A stretch of DNA of 64,000 bases, taken from Biomaibacter acetigenes. GTDB lineage: Bacteria > Bacillota > Thermosediminibacteria > Thermosediminibacterales > Tepidanaerobacteraceae. The DNA lies in contig NZ_CP033169.1 of NCBI RefSeq assembly GCF_003691585.1, positions 2,604,001 to 2,668,000 of the forward strand. The letters are read 5' to 3'. The position numbers and the translations under genes were made by a program. Position 1 is the stretch's first letter, and each line of letters begins with the position of its first letter. Positions 10,528 through 61,740 of this stretch are shown piece after piece. The notes beneath the pieces are model-generated. The model did not search any database. It saw only the letters and a list, made by a program, of their open reading frames with translations, and was not told the DNA's origin.

Positions 10528-11148
10528 TTACAATAATTTATTCAGCCAAGTCTTAATAAAATCATCTTGACTAGATTTTATAGAATCATCATAAAGTTGA
10601 TGCCCATATTTATCCCATTGTTGATGATTAACTTTTTGTCTATAATATTCTTTCATACGATTGTAAATAAAAACAAGAATTTCATTCCATGTCAGTTGAA
10701 CTACCTTAGATTTAAGAGTATCACGTTTTTCTTTGCCAATTGCAAAAAACTGAAAAACTATATTTTCATCTTCATAAAATTGATTATTATAAATTTCTTT
10801 AGCGACTTTATCTACACAATTTTCTGGAAAGACGCCCAAGGCATATAATATGCTTTCGATATTTTTCTTCTTCGGCTGAAGATAAGGCTTATTTAGTTTG
10901 CATTCTCCTCTAGTAAGTTCAGCAAAAATTATTTGTATCTTGTTAGGGAACTTCAAAAATTCTTTATAGTCTTCCATCGGATGACTAGAAGTTTTAAGCT
11001 CGCATCTATAAGGAAACCGAACACTTAAAATATCCGCTTCAGTTCTTTGTGATCCACGTTTTTCTGGATGAACTATGAAGTTAGTGATTGTTAAACATCC
11101 ATTAAGTCTAAAGAACCAATAAGCAACTGATATTGTTTCTGAACTCAT
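10528..11148 (-). CDS. Putative PD-(D/E)XK-like nuclease, third gene of QueC-linked unit
   Basis: A 206-residue soluble protein. The region FFRLNGCLTITNFIVHP, then RTEADILSVRFP, then FAELTRGECKLN, follows the layout of a nuclease-like family in which D (ADIL) and E-x-K form the active site. Here the position usually held by Lys is Thr (AEL-T), so activity is doubtful. The C-terminal half is charged and helical. Its start overlaps the stop of a small frame ending at 11145. It reads in the same direction as the QueC-like gene and probably shares its transcript. I infer a defence role from context only. Confidence 0.55.
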   Translation of the reverse strand: MSSETISVAYWFFRLNGCLTITNFIVHPEKRGSQRTEADILSVRFPYRCELKTSSHPMEDYKEFLKFPNKIQIIFAELTRGECKLNKPYLQPKKKNIESILYALGVFPENCVDKVAKEIYNNQFYEDENIVFQFFAIGKEKRDTLKSKVVQLTWNEILVFIYNRMKEYYRQKVNHQQWDKYGHQLYDDSIKSSQDDFIKTWLNKLL

Positions 11149-11257
11149 AAAAATCTCGCCTTCTCAATATCGGAATCAAAAAATACATTATAAATTTCAT
11201 CCATCCCTTTTAGCACTTTTTCGATAAAATATTTGCCTATCTTAGGTTGTCAACCAT
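11145..11257 (-). CDS. Possible small protein in QueC-linked unit (one frameshift)
   Basis: From the ATG at 11257, behind AAGGGAACAGG, a 37-codon protein (MVDNLKIGKYFIEKVLKGMD, ending in SDIEKARFL) appears if one A is restored in the run near 11240. Its TGA overlaps the ATG of the next gene, the spacing expected in an operon. It could also be the tail of a larger lost gene. No family recognised. Confidence 0.35.
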
Positions 11258-11310
11258 CCTGTTCCCTTGATACCATCTATAGATTAGGCTCCCTCTTCCT
11301 TCTTATTAGC

Positions 11311-13184
11311 CTAGCGATATATTCTTACATAACACCCTTCGCGTCTACTTTCAAAATCTCTAATAAAGGTATCATCATCATCTATTTTCCTTTCAGGGTC
11401 ATACACAATAAATAATAAGCCGTATGCTTTTGGTACTTTTGTCATATCTTCAGCGATACCACTGGTTGCAACGGAAGGTGTTGTATTTTTGCGAATAAAT
11501 TTAGTTTCAATCAGCAAATCATCTTGTGAATGATCGGGATTATATGTGGTAATTCCAAATCTTATTGGTGGATATTCTCGCTCGAATTTAGTACTTTCGT
11601 TTATCAGGATAGCCTGAACTTTATCATTTAGATCATTCTCACTTTTGGGTTCTTCTCTTTTAAATAATATGGGTATTGTTTTTTTCAATAAGTTATCAAT
11701 CTCTATAACTTTATGCTCTATGGGTGTTTTTTTATATGCACGACTTGCCAGCATTTCAAGAAGAGAATCTTTAGGAATTTGACTTGACAAATCTTCATAC
11801 TTCATTTGCATACGCTTTGCAGCATAGAGAATAGAGTCTCCATATCTACAGAAAAGATCATAAACGTCTGACAACTTATCATCAGGGTTGTCTCCCGGTA
11901 TATAATCAATTAAATCATCGAGCTCATTTAAGAACTTTTCCCGAAAGTCTGCTTGATTTCTAATACCTTCCATACAGGCCAGACGAAGAGTACCATACAA
12001 TCTTTGCTTTGTCTCAGAATCAGGAATATGGTTTATAAAATCTTCCGTATATACACCTTCATCATATGCCTCTAGCTCAGCAGAATATATAGCGAACCTT
12101 CTATCAATACATTGTGAACAATAACCACAATGTGAGGCGCCACCTGGTTTATTTCGTGTTGAACTACAGGATACAGCATTTTCAATCATATTTAATTCAT
12201 GCGTTTTCTTAAAAATATTAACTACATCCTTTTTTGTTTCATTATAAATGGATTTTTTATTGTAAATGTATTATCAAAACATTGAAGAAAAGCTTGCATT
12301 AAGCCTATTGTCTTTGGATGAGTTGTCCGACTAGCCCTTGCATTCATGATATCGCCTTGTTTCGGTAAATTGATACTTGTAATGCCATTTTCATAAACAT
12401 TAAAACTGTGCTTATCATAGTAATTACAAATAGAAAAAGCGATTGAAGCATATAGAAACATCCTCGTTCTTTGGGTTTCTTCCAGGCTTGAAAATTTTCG
12501 TAAATGACATTCATATTTATAATGATTAATTCTATTATGGAATTTTTTCATTAATAACTCAACCAAAACATCTTGCGTATGAGTTACTTTTTTATTAGCT
12601 TGATGACTTACTAGACATAACTTTTTTTCTGGATAGGTATGCAAAAAATCTAGCGCTCCTGCTAAAGAATCCAGGCCACCAGAAAATAATATAATCTCAG
12701 TATTAGAAGCATCAGAAATAGGCAAAAAATCTTTGGTAAATAAAGATAGCTGGGTATAATTGCTTTCATTCGGTTGATTTTCTTGATTCATTTGGTAAAA
12801 ATAAAAATTATATTTTCTATCTCCAGACATAAAAACTAAAGCATTAGATAAAGCAGTCTTAACACTATCTTGTTCCCAAAAAGCTAGGTCCCTGACTGGA
12901 ATATGAAACTCAAAGATTCGAGCCCAGCTTTCGTTATAGAGACTATCACGCTCTCCTCTATCCACAGCTCTATCGGCTGAAAAAACATATGAAGCAATCT
13001 CTAATAAATCCAAGATCCTTTCAGGTAATTCATCCGGATTTTTAATAAAACGGCTAAGTGCAATATGTACGTTTCCTTTTTCTTTTTCATTATCAAAATA
13101 TGATAGCCTTATAACTTTTCCGGTAGGATTTACTTTATCTGGATGAACATTACTACAAATAATTATATTTGGAGACTGACTCAT
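11311..13184 (-). CDS. QueC-like (QatC-type) protein fused to a PD-(D/E)XK-like domain; one frameshift
   Basis: Restoring one A near 12240-12245 joins two frames into a protein of about 624 residues. It has an N-terminal domain (1-160; RAVDRGERD, GDRKYNFYF) as in QatC proteins and a PP-loop ATPase core with SGGLDS at 168-173, the QueC signature. A zinc-binding Cys cluster (CSSTRNKPGGASHCGYCSQC) follows, then a helical linker. The C-terminal segment DHSQDDLLIETKFIR has a D...ExK pattern typical of restriction-like nucleases. QueC itself makes preQ0; QueC-like proteins in defence systems act on partner proteins. The start overlaps the upstream gene by four bases (ATGA). Confidence 0.7.
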
Positions 13185-13960
13185 AGAGCTTCAGCCTCCC
13201 TCCGTAACTCTGCCCTTATTTTGCCGAATGTCATATTTAGAAATCTGGTTATTTCTTCATTAGTAGGAATATCACTACGACTATATTTATTAAACCATCC
13301 TGCAGCAAAAGATTGCATAATCTTTGAAATCTCAAAAGCATGTGTAGACAAAGCCTCACTTTGCTTTGTTAGCTTTTGTGAAAATATTTCTATCGAATCA
13401 TAATCATCAATAGCTTGAGCGGCTTCTCTTTCTAAATAATATCTCAGATGTCGATTTGTAAATTCTGTAAAGAAAAGTCTTGCCAATTCACAGAAAGCTG
13501 CACCTGTTCCTATATTTTTCCATGGGGTTTCATTTGAATTATTAAAGAGTGAAAGTTGTTTGTTGCCTTTTTTTCTTTCATAAGAAGAAAGAACATATAA
13601 TACAGCATCAACAACCATTTTATTGGTCTCAAGTGATCCAGTATCTGTGACTATATAATCCTTTGCACATCTTATAAGAGAAAATAAGGAGAATCTTTCA
13701 TCAACGATGAGTCCGTTTTTTGCAAGAAATTCCCTTTGATCTTGTTGATTTGCAGAAAGAGATAGGATTATCAAAAAGCGAATTGCTTTAATAACAGATT
13801 CATCAGATGACATTTGTTCATATTTCTTTTTAATATTCGCAAGCGTATTATTGGAAATTTTTGTAACTGTATCATCTGAGCAATCAAAATCAGTAAGTTG
13901 CTTAATAATGTCAACCCAGGGCTGTGTTCGCGGTAAAAAACCTATTCTTTCATGCCCCAT
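13181..13960 (-). CDS. Partner protein of the QueC-like protein (Met-Gly start)
   Basis: A 259-residue, mostly helical protein with no membrane segments or known motif. I chose the ATG at 13960 because GGGGGA lies seven bases upstream; the protein then starts MGHERIGFLPRTQPWVDIIK. After removal of Met, Gly would be N-terminal. The stop overlaps the QueC-like start (ATGA), implying tight co-expression. In other QueC-linked immune systems the gene beside the QueC-like enzyme encodes its substrate, so this is the likely substrate. No QatA-type ATPase or TatD-type QatD is nearby. Confidence 0.55.
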   Translation of the reverse strand: MGHERIGFLPRTQPWVDIIKQLTDFDCSDDTVTKISNNTLANIKKKYEQMSSDESVIKAIRFLIILSLSANQQDQREFLAKNGLIVDERFSLFSLIRCAKDYIVTDTGSLETNKMVVDAVLYVLSSYERKKGNKQLSLFNNSNETPWKNIGTGAAFCELARLFFTEFTNRHLRYYLEREAAQAIDDYDSIEIFSQKLTKQSEALSTHAFEISKIMQSFAAGWFNKYSRSDIPTNEEITRFLNMTFGKIRAELRREAEAL

Positions 13961-51569: not shown

Positions 51570-53456
51570 ATGGCTATACTTTCTGTATCAAACCTTGGAA
51601 AAAGCTTTGGAACGGATACAATACTCCAGAATGTGAGTTTTTTAATAGAGGAAAGGGATAAAATAGGGCTGGTAGGTTTGAACGGGGCCGGCAAGTCCAC
51701 CCTCCTGAAGATTCTCGCAGGCAGAATGCCTTATGACACCGGCACCATATCGGTTTCCAAAGGAACTACTATAGGTTACATGGCCCAGGATATAAGGTCC
51801 GAGGGTTTCGAGACCGTGGGCGATGCGCTGGAATCCGTATTTGAGACACTGTGGGAACAGGAGAGGCAGCTTCGGGACCTGGAAAAGCAGATGTCTCTGC
51901 CGGAGGTCTACAGCGACGAAGATGCCCTTCACCGCCTCATGGAAAGGTATTCGGCCCTGTCGGAAGCCTTTAAAAGCAGCGGAGGCTATGAGATCGAAAG
52001 CCGCATCCGCGGGGTGTTAAAAGGCCTAGGGTTCGAAGACCCTGCCACCCCTCTTGACACCTTAAGCGGCGGCCAGAAGACCCGCCTGGCCCTGGGGCGG
52101 CTGCTACTGGAATCCCCGCAGCTCCTGTTGCTGGATGAACCTACCAACTATCTTGATATGGAATCCCTGCAGTGGCTGGAAGGATTTTTAAAGGACTATC
52201 CCGGGGCGGTGCTGGTGGTGTCCCATGACAGGTATTTTCTGGACCGGATGGCCACAAGAATCTTTGAGCTGGAAAACTGCCGCCTGACCGTATATTCCGG
52301 AAATTATTCCGAATTTATAAAGAAGAAGGAGACAAATCTCGCCATAGAACAGAAGCATGAAATTCTCAGGCAAAAAGAAGCCGAACGTCTGAAAAAGAGC
52401 ATCCAGAACTTCATATCCCACAGGAATTTTGTTCAGGCCGAGACCCGCCGCAGGATGCTGGAGGACCTTCTGCCAAAATCCACATCTGAAAAGGCCGGTA
52501 AGGATCTCTTTAAGGTCAGGTTCAATATGCGGCAAACTAGCGGCAGAGAGGTGCTTACGATCTGCGACCTGGAATTTTCATACGGCAACAAGCTCATCCT
52601 GAGTTCCGTGAACCTCCGGGTGTTCCGCGGAGAGCGCATCGGAATCATCGGGCCCAACGGCATAGGAAAATCCACCCTGCTGAAAATTCTGGCGGGAGAA
52701 CTGGAGCCTGATGATGGAAGCGTGTATTTTGGCCACAAGGTGCAGCCGGTATTTTTTGCCCAGGAGCAGGAAGACCTTTCTCCGGATTCCACGGTGCTTT
52801 CGGAGGTATGGAGTGCGGCACCGGGGCTTTCAATGACCCAGGTACGCTCTTTTCTTGGAAGTATGCTGTTTTCCGGCGAGGATGTAGAAAAGCCCATAGG
52901 GGTGTTGAGCGGTGGGGAAAAGAGCAGGGTGGCTCTGGCAAAGGCCATCCTGCAGGGAGCTAATTTACTTTTGCTGGATGAACCTACAAATCATCTGGAC
53001 ATAATATCAAAGGAAAAACTTGAACAGGCCCTCCTGGAATTTGACGGCACCATCATAGCCGTTTCCCATGATAGATATTTTCTTTCCAAAATAGCCACCC
53101 GCATATGGGAATTCACCTCCAGCGGCATCCGGGATTTTGACGGGGATTTCAATTATTACCTGGAGAAGAAACGGGAAACAGAAAAACCTGAAGAACCACA
53201 GTTTGTAGGAAACAAGACCCAGCAGCGAAAGGCCAGGATGCAGGAGAAGAAAAGGCGGGAGGAACAGAGGCAGGAAGAGATGAGGTTAAAACAGATAGAG
53301 CAGGATATACAGGCCCTGGAAAGGGAGATGGAGGAGCTGGAGCACCTGCTCTGCCTGCCGGAAGTTTACGGCAATCCCGAAAGGGCAAGAGAGGTAAATG
53401 CCCGCTACAGGGCTGTGATGGCTGAGCTAGAAGAGCTTTACGAGAATCTGGGGTAG
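51570..53456 (+). CDS. ABC-F family ATP-binding protein
   Basis: A 628-residue soluble protein with two ABC ATPase domains. The first has Walker A GLNGAGKST (36-44), LSGGQKTRLALGRLL and LLLLDEPTNYLD. The second has GPNGIGKST, LSGGEKSRVALAKAI and LLLLDEPTNHLD. A charged linker joins them and a C-terminal coiled coil follows (residues ~545-628). ABC-F proteins act on the ribosome, not in transport. Resembles YdiF/YfmM-like housekeeping members rather than antibiotic-resistance ones. Confidence 0.9.
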   Translation: MAILSVSNLGKSFGTDTILQNVSFLIEERDKIGLVGLNGAGKSTLLKILAGRMPYDTGTISVSKGTTIGYMAQDIRSEGFETVGDALESVFETLWEQERQLRDLEKQMSLPEVYSDEDALHRLMERYSALSEAFKSSGGYEIESRIRGVLKGLGFEDPATPLDTLSGGQKTRLALGRLLLESPQLLLLDEPTNYLDMESLQWLEGFLKDYPGAVLVVSHDRYFLDRMATRIFELENCRLTVYSGNYSEFIKKKETNLAIEQKHEILRQKEAERLKKSIQNFISHRNFVQAETRRRMLEDLLPKSTSEKAGKDLFKVRFNMRQTSGREVLTICDLEFSYGNKLILSSVNLRVFRGERIGIIGPNGIGKSTLLKILAGELEPDDGSVYFGHKVQPVFFAQEQEDLSPDSTVLSEVWSAAPGLSMTQVRSFLGSMLFSGEDVEKPIGVLSGGEKSRVALAKAILQGANLLLLDEPTNHLDIISKEKLEQALLEFDGTIIAVSHDRYFLSKIATRIWEFTSSGIRDFDGDFNYYLEKKRETEKPEEPQFVGNKTQQRKARMQEKKRREEQRQEEMRLKQIEQDIQALEREMEELEHLLCLPEVYGNPERAREVNARYRAVMAELEELYENLG

Positions 53457-60295: not shown

Positions 60296-60362
60296 AGGAA
60301 TTCGGCTCTGCTGAATTCCGACTTAATAGAACATCGAACCTCTAACTTCGAATTTCGAACTA
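60296..60362. repeat. GAATTC palindrome and TTCGAA-rich repeat
   Basis: GGAATTC-GGCTCTGCT-GAATTCC forms a hairpin (60298-60320). It is followed by CGAACCTCTAACTTCGAATT, a short repeat family also seen at 38344-38362 and 38516-38535 (GAGGTTCGAAGTTCGA). Confidence 0.6.
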
Positions 60363-61562
60363 AGGTAGGACTTTCGCCGCAACTTTGGCCACTCTTGGGT
60401 CAAACTGACTGCCGGAGTTTTTTATAAGTATGTCCCTGGCTTCGGTAGTACTTCTCTGCCGCTGGTAAGGCCTCAAGGAAGTCATGGCATCGTATGCATC
60501 GGCTACCGCCATGATTCTGGCACCGAAGGGAATGCTTTCACCTGTCAGGCCGTCGGGGTATCCGGCTCCGTCATACCGCTCATGATGGCCACCAGCAATG
60601 ACCACCAGGTCCTTTAAGGAGTTGACCATGCTCATGATTTCCATGGTGTACACGGGGTGTCTTTTCATGAGCTTGAATTCATCGATTGTGAGGCGGCCGG
60701 GTTTATCCAGGATACTTCGGGGAACGGCCACCTTCCCTGCATCATGCAGGTATCCGGCCACTTTGAGTCTTTCGGCTTGCCCCTCCGGCAAATCTAAGGC
60801 TTTCGCCAGGATATATGTATATTCCGCCACGCGCTCCGAGTGGCCCGCGGTATAGCTGTGCTTGGCGTCTATTACCTCTGCAAATACTTTTATGATTTCA
60901 TCGGTTTCGGTCCTGCACGAGGTCATATCCATAAAGGGCAGATTTTGCAAAGTTTTCGGCACTATATCCGATATCTTTTTTTCATCCATGATTTCATTGA
61001 AAAAGTCATCTTCTTCAATAGTAGCTACCATCAGCTCGTATATGAGGTCAGAGAACTCCGTCCCCCTTCGGGCAGACAGCGAAGTCTTCATCCCGTTCAA
61101 ACTGAGCGGGGGTTTAACTCTGGCAAGGATGTCAAAAGTGTCACAAATCCGGAGTATCTGCCCTCCCAGGTTTATGTCATTTCCGGCAAGTCCCCGGGGG
61201 TAACCGCTGCCATCCCACTGTTCATGGTGGTCCCGGATCATTTCTGCAGCCATAAAGAGAGGACCTATTTGCTTCACAATTTGTGCGCTCTTTCCGGGAT
61301 GATGGAAGAGGATAGGATTCGTGAAATGTTCTTTTATGTTGGTATAGTGCACCACATGGTCCGGCAGGGATATGGCGCCGATATCGTGAAGGAGGCCAGC
61401 ATAAAAGATCTGGGTCCTGTATTCGGGGAGTATTTTTTGGGCAAGTTTCTCGGCTAAAATCGCCACACGCCATGCATGAAACAGTTTCCTGTTTTCATCC
61501 AGGTCCATCATGAGAGACAGTGCTGTTATTAGCTCTGAAAAAAATTGAGTCTTAGATTCCAT
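60360..61562 (-). CDS. Tandem HD / HD-GYP domain phosphodiesterase-like protein
   Basis: A 400-residue protein with two HD domains. The first has HDIGAISLPDHVVHY and a HHEQWDGSGYPRGL segment. The second is a full HD-GYP with HDAGKVAVPRSILDKPGRLT, HHERYDGAGYPDGLTGESIP and VADAYDAMTSLRPYQ. HD-GYP domains hydrolyse cyclic di-GMP. I chose ATG 61562 after ATGGAGG. No membrane or sensor domain, so cytosolic. Confidence 0.88.
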   Translation of the reverse strand: MESKTQFFSELITALSLMMDLDENRKLFHAWRVAILAEKLAQKILPEYRTQIFYAGLLHDIGAISLPDHVVHYTNIKEHFTNPILFHHPGKSAQIVKQIGPLFMAAEMIRDHHEQWDGSGYPRGLAGNDINLGGQILRICDTFDILARVKPPLSLNGMKTSLSARRGTEFSDLIYELMVATIEEDDFFNEIMDEKKISDIVPKTLQNLPFMDMTSCRTETDEIIKVFAEVIDAKHSYTAGHSERVAEYTYILAKALDLPEGQAERLKVAGYLHDAGKVAVPRSILDKPGRLTIDEFKLMKRHPVYTMEIMSMVNSLKDLVVIAGGHHERYDGAGYPDGLTGESIPFGARIMAVADAYDAMTSLRPYQRQRSTTEARDILIKNSGSQFDPRVAKVAAKVLP

Positions 61563-61740
61563 TTTATTCCTCCATGTATTTTGCAAAAAGCTGCAGTAAA
61601 AGACCAATTTATGCAGGTTTTTGCACCAATTTTTTCAAAAAATGGCATATATAAATATATATTCTAAATTAATTTGAGTAATCCTTCTTTTTTTTTTTTA
61701 AATTTATATAGATTATTGCATAAATGTATAAAAAATGAAA

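What the first reader, a model, noticed from the sequence alone, without database searches (positions are those of the whole stretch)
10528..13960. Candidate new QueC-linked defence unit inside the polysaccharide cluster
Three tightly coupled minus-strand genes, plus a possible 37-codon gene, encode a partner protein (13181-13960), a QueC-like protein with a QatC-like N-domain, PP-loop (SGGLDS) and Cys cluster fused to a PD-(D/E)XK-like domain (11311-13184), and a second nuclease-like protein (10528-11148). QueC-like proteins occur in Qat and type IV CBASS immunity, but no QatA ATPase, TatD-like QatD, CD-NTase or Cap10/OGG partner is present. The combination of a QueC-nuclease fusion, substrate and second nuclease looks like a distinct minimal system. 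It splits the otherwise continuous polysaccharide cluster, as an inserted accessory island would.
Basis: partly seen in the sequence, partly recalled or inferred. Interest (0 to 1): 0.85.

Follow-up and report, generated by a model that had tools for sequence, protein, structure and literature searches.

The report
Qat-like defence pair with swappable effectors
The window holds a broken copy of a widespread two-gene bacterial unit that looks like the core of the Qat anti-phage system but carries its own weapon (here a DNA-cutting domain, in relatives a TIR or protease domain) fused to one protein, so it is probably an overlooked branch of bacterial immunity.

Summary
The core observation holds, with corrections. 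Genes 13181-13960 and 11311-13184 form a conserved two-gene cassette: a helical partner starting MGHER, and a QatC-like enzyme fused to a PD-(D/E)XK domain. In the window the fusion is split over two frames; in most relatives it is one ORF of about 620 codons. The pair recurs in 42 of 42 non-window loci found with the partner (40 genome contigs, mostly MAGs of many phyla; one plasmid; one viral contig). The third gene (10528-11148) accompanies none, so the three-gene unit fails. QatA and QatD were not found in 47 of 47 family loci, but in 8 of 8 controls. Predicted folds match QatB (Z 15.4) and QatC (Z 31.3), though partner and QatB share no detectable sequence similarity. The C-terminal slot is modular: nuclease in 27 of 34 fusions, ThsB-like TIR in 2, trypsin-like in 2, other in 3. 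Neighbours include many defence genes. Best reading: a QatBC-type immune switch, probably modifying its partner's N-terminal glycine, with an exchangeable fused effector. Twelve of 41 carrier genomes lack QueD and a QueC over cut-off, so a 7-deazaguanine substrate is doubtful. New variant of a known kind; function untested.

The parts
13181..13960 (-). partner protein (259 aa, start assigned at 13960), QatB-like predicted fold, N-terminus MGHERIGFLPRTQPW with presumed acceptor glycine G2
   Evidence: ORF (the longest ORF starts at a TTG, 13999); homologues begin MGH; predicted fold matches QatB 9y01_A, Z 15.4, 207 of 215 residues
12222..13184 (-). first frame of the fusion: QatC-like N-terminal extension and QueC-type core (320 aa); its ATG overlaps the partner's stop
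   Evidence: NCBIfam QatC 150 bits, PADLOC QatC 136 bits; 42% identical to the intact Leptospira fusion
11311..12246 (-). second frame of the fusion: cysteine part of QatC, helical extension, DpnII/MboI-type PD-(D/E)XK domain (311 codons open; first ATG at 12189)
   Evidence: QatC 29 bits, PF18742 29.8 bits, 33% identical to the intact Leptospira fusion
12666..12683 (-). PP-loop SGGLDS (ATP pyrophosphate site)
   Evidence: sequence; SGGxDS in 50 of 50 aligned family and other QatC-like proteins
11500..11535 (-). PD-(D/E)XK active-site residues D...E-T-K
   Evidence: sequence; D554, E563, K565 of L038 are conserved in at least 90% of alignment A4

Best explanation
The unit is a minimal QatBC-type immune switch with a covalently fused effector. 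The QatC-like part binds ATP and probably joins a small carboxylate to the N-terminal glycine of the QatB-like partner (MGHER tail), keeping the complex poised or autoinhibited. On phage infection the complex changes state (release, demodification or clustering) and activates the C-terminal effector, which in this lineage cuts DNA and in others is a TIR domain or a trypsin-like protease. Shown here by computation: cassette conservation, predicted folds, conserved active-site residues, interchangeable effectors, absence of QatA and QatD, defence genes nearby. Inferred: glycine modification, infection sensing, effector activation, anti-phage activity. The window copy is split by a frame break and is probably inactive, unless that is a sequencing error.
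For: A QatC-like gene or remnant follows the partner in 42 of 42 non-window loci; start overlaps stop by 4 bases in 24 of 34. Partner begins MGH in 26 of 26 loci found without the N-terminal search pattern that still have an N-terminus and, by assigned start, in 3 of 3 complete partners from a later profile search; in A3, M1 G2 H3 R5 P10 W15 are invariant, recalling QatB's MGTS, P16 and W18 (PMC13279940). QatB fold Z 15.4, next row 5.7; QatC fold Z 31.3 over 401 of 428 residues. Effector slot: DpnII-MboI, TIR (ThsB 214 and 174 bits), trypsin-like (RT-Protease_XI 100 and 112 bits), PDC-M36A-like; the two TIR fusions are not sisters on the tree. QatA/QatD in 0 of 47 family loci and 8 of 8 controls. 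Neighbours include restriction-modification, Pycsar, Hma, AbiE, PglZ and DrmD-like genes. QatB and QatC alone protect against lambda, and the QatB glycine is essential (PMC13279940, Results).
Against: No phage or biochemical test. The window copy is frame-broken and 6 of 40 genome copies are broken too. QatC activity itself has not been reconstituted in vitro. The partner shows no profile similarity to QatB (hhalign probability 0.5%), its best Foldseek E-value is 0.024, and helical folds can reach high Z without kinship (note). The partner tail is short (first helix at residue 13) against 30-90 residues in many QatB proteins. The window's neighbours are polysaccharide genes. QatC-type genes without qatA nearby are not new in themselves: PMC13329287 (section read) finds qatA by only 34.3% of its QatC cluster.
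Confidence: 0.78

Rival explanations
1. A modification-linked restriction system: the fused nuclease (and TIR/protease variants) is kept off by a QatC-made modification, but the unit restricts incoming DNA such as plasmids rather than sensing phage infection.
For: DpnII/MboI-type domain; restriction-modification genes among neighbours.
Against: TIR and protease domains in the same slot would not cut DNA; no methyltransferase was seen as a constant part of the cassette (one search lists the ORFs next to it).
Confidence: 0.12
2. A toxin-antitoxin-like stabilisation module: the effector is the toxin, and the QatB-like protein or its modification is the antidote.
For: Two overlapping genes, rarity in the window's phylum (2 of 398 genomes matched, the own one and one remnant), swappable, possibly toxic domains, carriage on a plasmid.
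Against: The related QatBC core has shown phage defence in published work; TA modules rarely need an ATP-using conjugating enzyme (recalled).
Confidence: 0.07
3. The fold match of partner to QatB is convergent helical packing, and the fusion acts on another, unknown substrate.
For: No sequence similarity; helical bundles often score moderately (note).
Against: Z 15.4 covers 207 of 215 residues and the next row is 5.7; same gene order next to a QatC; invariant N-terminal MGH with P10 and W15.
Confidence: 0.1

Closest known systems
qatABCD (QatB-QatC core)
   Same: QatC fold including N- and C-terminal extensions (Z 31.3); QatB-like fold of the partner (Z 15.4); SGGxDS, cysteine pattern, S/T-x-T in place of the Tyr/Asp nucleobase motif; gene order B then C; N-terminal Met-Gly
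   Different: no QatA or QatD (0 of 47 against 8 of 8 controls); effector domain fused to the C-terminus; partner N-terminus MGHER on a short tail instead of MGTS on a long one; separate clade from 12 other QatC-like proteins, two of them nearly identical (bootstrap 100)
type IV CBASS Cap9/CD-NTase
   Same: QueC-family enzyme paired with a protein that has an N-terminal glycine; fold match to Cap9 Z 13.2
   Different: partner fold is QatB-like; Cap9's Tyr/Asp substrate residues (PMC13279940) are replaced by S/T-x-T; no CD-NTase hit among 42 other window genes
Thoeris ThsB, RT-Protease_XI, DpnII/MboI restriction enzymes
   Same: resemble the C-terminal modules
   Different: here fused to a QatC-like protein

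Membership tests
qatABCD | QatC equivalog score (NF041925, cut-off 280 bits) | tested here: not met
   150 bits for 12222-13184 and 29 bits for the second frame; the two frames were scored apart, and no intact relative was scored against this model
qatABCD | QatC fold with both extensions | tested here: met
   intact relative L038: Z 31.3, 401 of 428 residues, model 10-482
qatABCD | QatB-fold partner encoded next to QatC | tested here: met
   Z 15.4, but no sequence-profile similarity
qatABCD | N-terminal MGTS motif of QatB | tested here: not met
   MGH followed by E, V or T instead; the glycine is kept
qatABCD | QatA ATPase and QatD TatD nuclease in the operon | tested here: not met
   0 of 47 family loci by tblastn at E 1e-4, several short or cut by contig ends; controls 8 of 8, four of which supplied the queries
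type IV CBASS | Tyr/Asp nucleobase-binding residues of Cap9/QueC | tested here: not met
   S/T-x-T at these positions in 38 of 38 family sequences
type IV CBASS | CD-NTase and Cap10 partners | tested here: inconclusive
   no such PADLOC hit among 42 window genes; not sought by their own profiles in relatives
DpnII-MboI restriction enzymes (PF18742) | Pfam gathering score and PD-(D/E)XK residues | tested here: met
   29.8 bits against cut-off 27; D, E, K conserved
anti-phage defence system | protection against phage | not testable with these tools
   needs plaque assays

The most novel reading that the evidence does not exclude
QatBC is a general immune switch with interchangeable outputs, free-standing in qatABCD and fused (nuclease, TIR, protease) here, and the group it puts on the partner's glycine is not a 7-deazaguanine but another ATP-activated carboxylate: 12 of 41 carrier genomes, including the single-contig window genome and the L016 genome with two full-length genes, have no QueD, no QueC over cut-off and no strong QueE match, and the active site lacks the deazaguanine-binding Tyr/Asp.
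Probability: 0.35. Interest if true: 0.88.

Novelty: new variant of a known kind. Interest (0 to 1): 0.75.

Why it matters
PMC13279940 (Discussion) names two open questions: what QatC puts on QatB, and how that stops phage. A branch in which the output is fused and swapped suggests an answer to the second by anatomy (the core is a switch) and makes the first testable in hosts without 7-deazaguanine synthesis. It also offers a QatB-fold relative; that paper reports no structural match of QatB to a protein of known function.

Tried and rejected
Third gene as a component: rejected (0 of 42 cassettes). Its relatives occur in 12 of 397 other genomes of a phylum sample, while the partner profile in a 398-genome phylum sample matched only the own genome and an N-terminal remnant in G194. 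No viral relative found.

Programmed frameshift: not favoured. I saw no canonical slippery site in phase at the window break (by eye), and the breaks in L023, L039 and L048 lie at other places in the protein.

Sequence homology of partner to QatB: not found. Pfam and NCBIfam for the partner: nothing credible.

Empty-site test of the insertion claim: inconclusive. GC of the unit (about 31-35%) is not clearly apart from its flanks.

Rows dropped: L002 (E 8.8e-4) is a false match in spore-germination-like ORFs (read by eye). L079 (E 7.9e-6, stops inside) was not pursued. A3 leaves out L030, L039, L042, L048 and L051 (broken or cut) and L003 (structure-tool rule). L083's partner is cut at its N-terminus: left out of the MGH count and the tree.

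Literature: searches (listings) showed no paper describing QatC fused to nuclease, TIR or protease. The library is open-access only; one further QatBC report and the Science CBASS paper are not held, and a third QatBC preprint cited was not looked up, so a description elsewhere is not excluded.

Full report
WHAT IS IN THE WINDOW. On the minus strand the partner ORF (259 aa, 13181-13960) is followed by a QatC-like ORF (12222-13184) and, in another frame, by its continuation (11311-12246). I assign the partner start at 13960, seven bases after AGGGGG; the longest ORF starts at a TTG (13999). In some relatives the same start codon is GTG or TTG (L016, L021). The QatC-like part scores 150 bits against NCBIfam QatC (cut-off 280) and the second frame 29 bits; the C-terminus scores 29.8 bits against DpnII-MboI (cut-off 27). 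The homologous protein on a Leptospira noguchii plasmid is one ORF of 621 aa. The window copy is the only partner match in its single-contig genome. It is a broken copy or a sequencing error.

HOW WIDESPREAD. A scan of the genome collection with the three-row partner alignment A2 gave 158 stretches, 41 of them encoding relatives, in 40 loci. Record titles, nearly all MAGs, name Planctomycetota, Chloroflexi, Verrucomicrobia, Bacteroidota groups, Clostridia groups, Poribacteria, KSB1, Omnitrophota, Bipolaricaulota and others. One more locus came from a plasmid and one from viral contigs. Of the 40 genome loci, 31 have two full-length ORFs, 3 are cut by contig ends (L022, L036, L042) and 6 are broken (L023, L030, L035, L039, L048, L051). 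A QatC-like gene or remnant follows the partner in 42 of 42 loci (40 genome loci, plasmid L003, viral L011, where it is truncated). The fusion's start overlaps the partner's stop by 4 bases in 24 of 34. A profile search of 288 genomes of the Verrucomicrobia phylum, free of the N-terminal pattern, matched 5 genomes, one already known, adding four more divergent loci. In the window's phylum 2 of 398 genomes matched: the own genome, and an N-terminal remnant beside an ORF that by eye looks like a CRISPR RAMP protein.

THE PARTNER. Alignment A3 (window and 36 of the 42 loci) has M1, G2, H3, R5, P10 and W15 invariant; mean column identity is 49%. The search pattern partly selects for this, so I counted the loci without it: 28 of 42, of which 2 lack the N-terminus; the other 26 of 26 begin MGH. 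The three complete divergent partners carry MGHVR, MGHVL and MGHTR; in two of them the longest ORF starts further upstream. The predicted structure (pLDDT 81) is all helical, residues 1-6 below pLDDT 50. Its best PDB matches are QatB chains 9y01_A and 9y02_A, Z 15.4 and 15.1 at 3.3 A over 207 and 204 residues; next is 5.7. Foldseek gives E 0.024, probability 1.00. Profile comparison with seven canonical QatB proteins gives nothing (probability 0.5%). So it is QatB-like by fold, not by detectable sequence.

THE ENZYME. The intact L038 fusion was modelled (pLDDT 82); residues 10-482 match QatC 9y01_B at Z 31.3, 401 of 428 residues, above QueC and Cap9 (13.5, 13.2). SGGxDS is in 50 of 50 aligned proteins. 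In Pseudomonas QatC, T278 and T280 replace the deazaguanine-binding Tyr/Asp of QueC and Cap9 (PMC13279940, Results). By alignment, position 278 is S in 33 and T in 2 of 35 family members, T in 3 of 3 divergent ones and T in 12 of 12 other QatC-like proteins; position 280 is T in all 50. The family is a clade apart from those 12 (UFBoot 100, branch 0.81).

THE EFFECTOR SLOT. Of 34 fusions, 27 match the nuclease domain of the Leptospira protein (this counts L003 itself, and L036 only in part at its contig end). The other seven: TIR, L027 and L049 (PADLOC ThsB 214 and 174 bits); trypsin-like, L045 and L047 (RT-Protease_XI 100 and 112 bits); PDC-M36A-like, L033 (43 bits); unassigned, L018 and L042. 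The divergent loci have another C-terminus, without a Pfam match there in the three tested. The TIR pair is not a clade, and L027's neighbour on the tree, L024, carries the nuclease, which suggests repeated exchange; support inside the family was not examined. Interchangeable genes fused to core immunity genes are described for other defence systems (PMC12799240, passages seen).

CONTEXT. tblastn with QatA and QatD found neither in 47 family loci (window, L003, L011-L051, L080-L083; several short) but both in 8 of 8 qat controls, four of which supplied the queries. Published neighbourhood work already finds qatA beside only 34.3% of a QatC cluster (PMC13329287, section read), so lack of QatA alone is not new. 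Of 158 neighbour genes picked around 31 loci, 112 were scanned with PADLOC at E 1e-10; matching models include type I, II, IIG and III restriction-modification, Pycsar cyclase and TIR, HmaC, AbiEii, PglZ and DrmD (only the first 25 of 91 and of 154 families are listed, with totals by family, so I cannot say how many genes hit). Of ten neighbours chosen for length and scanned singly, six hit (L017 and L045 weakly) and four did not. In the window 1 of 42 other genes hit, an ATPase-like protein.

7-DEAZAGUANINE. QueD (PF01242) was found in 29 of 41 carrier genomes and QueC (TIGR00364) over cut-off in 19. Of the 12 without QueD, 0 have QueC over cut-off (G417 has a 47-bit partial match). They include the window genome (one contig, 99.56% complete) and the L016 genome, whose contig is 3.18 Mb of about 3.2 Mb and whose two genes are full-length. 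The QueE model (TIGR03365) reached its cut-off in 0 of 41; with 40 bits as my own line, 22 of the 29 QueD carriers and 0 of the 12 pass, so it misses QueE in genomes that have the pathway (e.g. G414), and its silence is weak evidence. In the own genome Pfam QueC gives only two short PP-loop matches (28.7 and 20.1 bits, both marked over its cut-off, the second with its neighbours). Tgt is present in 8 of 8 tested, so these cells may salvage queuosine precursors. Against this reading: most carriers do have QueD, most of the 12 are MAGs, and another source of substrate is possible. Of four genomes with other QatC-like genes two lack QueD, and of the four divergent carriers two lack it.

THIRD GENE. 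The ORF 10528-11148 has a relative on an Aquincola plasmid (35%) and in 12 other genomes of a phylum sample. It has no Pfam or PADLOC match and only a 12.7-bit NCBIfam one, and was found beside 0 of 42 cassettes. It is probably an independent gene.

MECHANISM. Published: QatB and QatC form a complex, suffice against lambda, and need the QatB glycine and QatC catalytic residues; the reaction is not known (PMC13279940, Results and Discussion). Cap9 takes part in attaching a deazaguanine to the CD-NTase N-terminus (PMC11996544, abstract). The anatomy here fits a QatBC switch whose fused domain is the weapon. Modification, sensing and killing remain inferred.

Noticed in passing
window 10528-11148: Orphan nuclease-like ORF (D...ELK motif by eye) with relatives in 12 other genomes of a phylum sample, not part of the cassette.
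   Followed up: partly
L011:7500-7760: In a viral contig the QatC-like gene is cut off at a stretch that by eye looks like a tRNA 3' end, as at an integration junction.
   Followed up: no
L073:1423-1620: N-terminal remnant of the partner (MGHERVGILPKTQRW) near an ORF that by eye looks like a type III CRISPR RAMP protein.
   Followed up: no
L080-L083: Divergent Verrucomicrobia-phylum cassettes with a different C-terminal domain of about 200 residues, no Pfam match there in the three tested.
   Followed up: partly
window 51570-53456: Protein that matches PADLOC mad3 and AriA models, probably through generic ATPase similarity.
   Followed up: partly
window 60360-61607: Protein with a weak Cas3-HD-like match (E 7.7e-10), probably a generic HD domain.
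   Followed up: no
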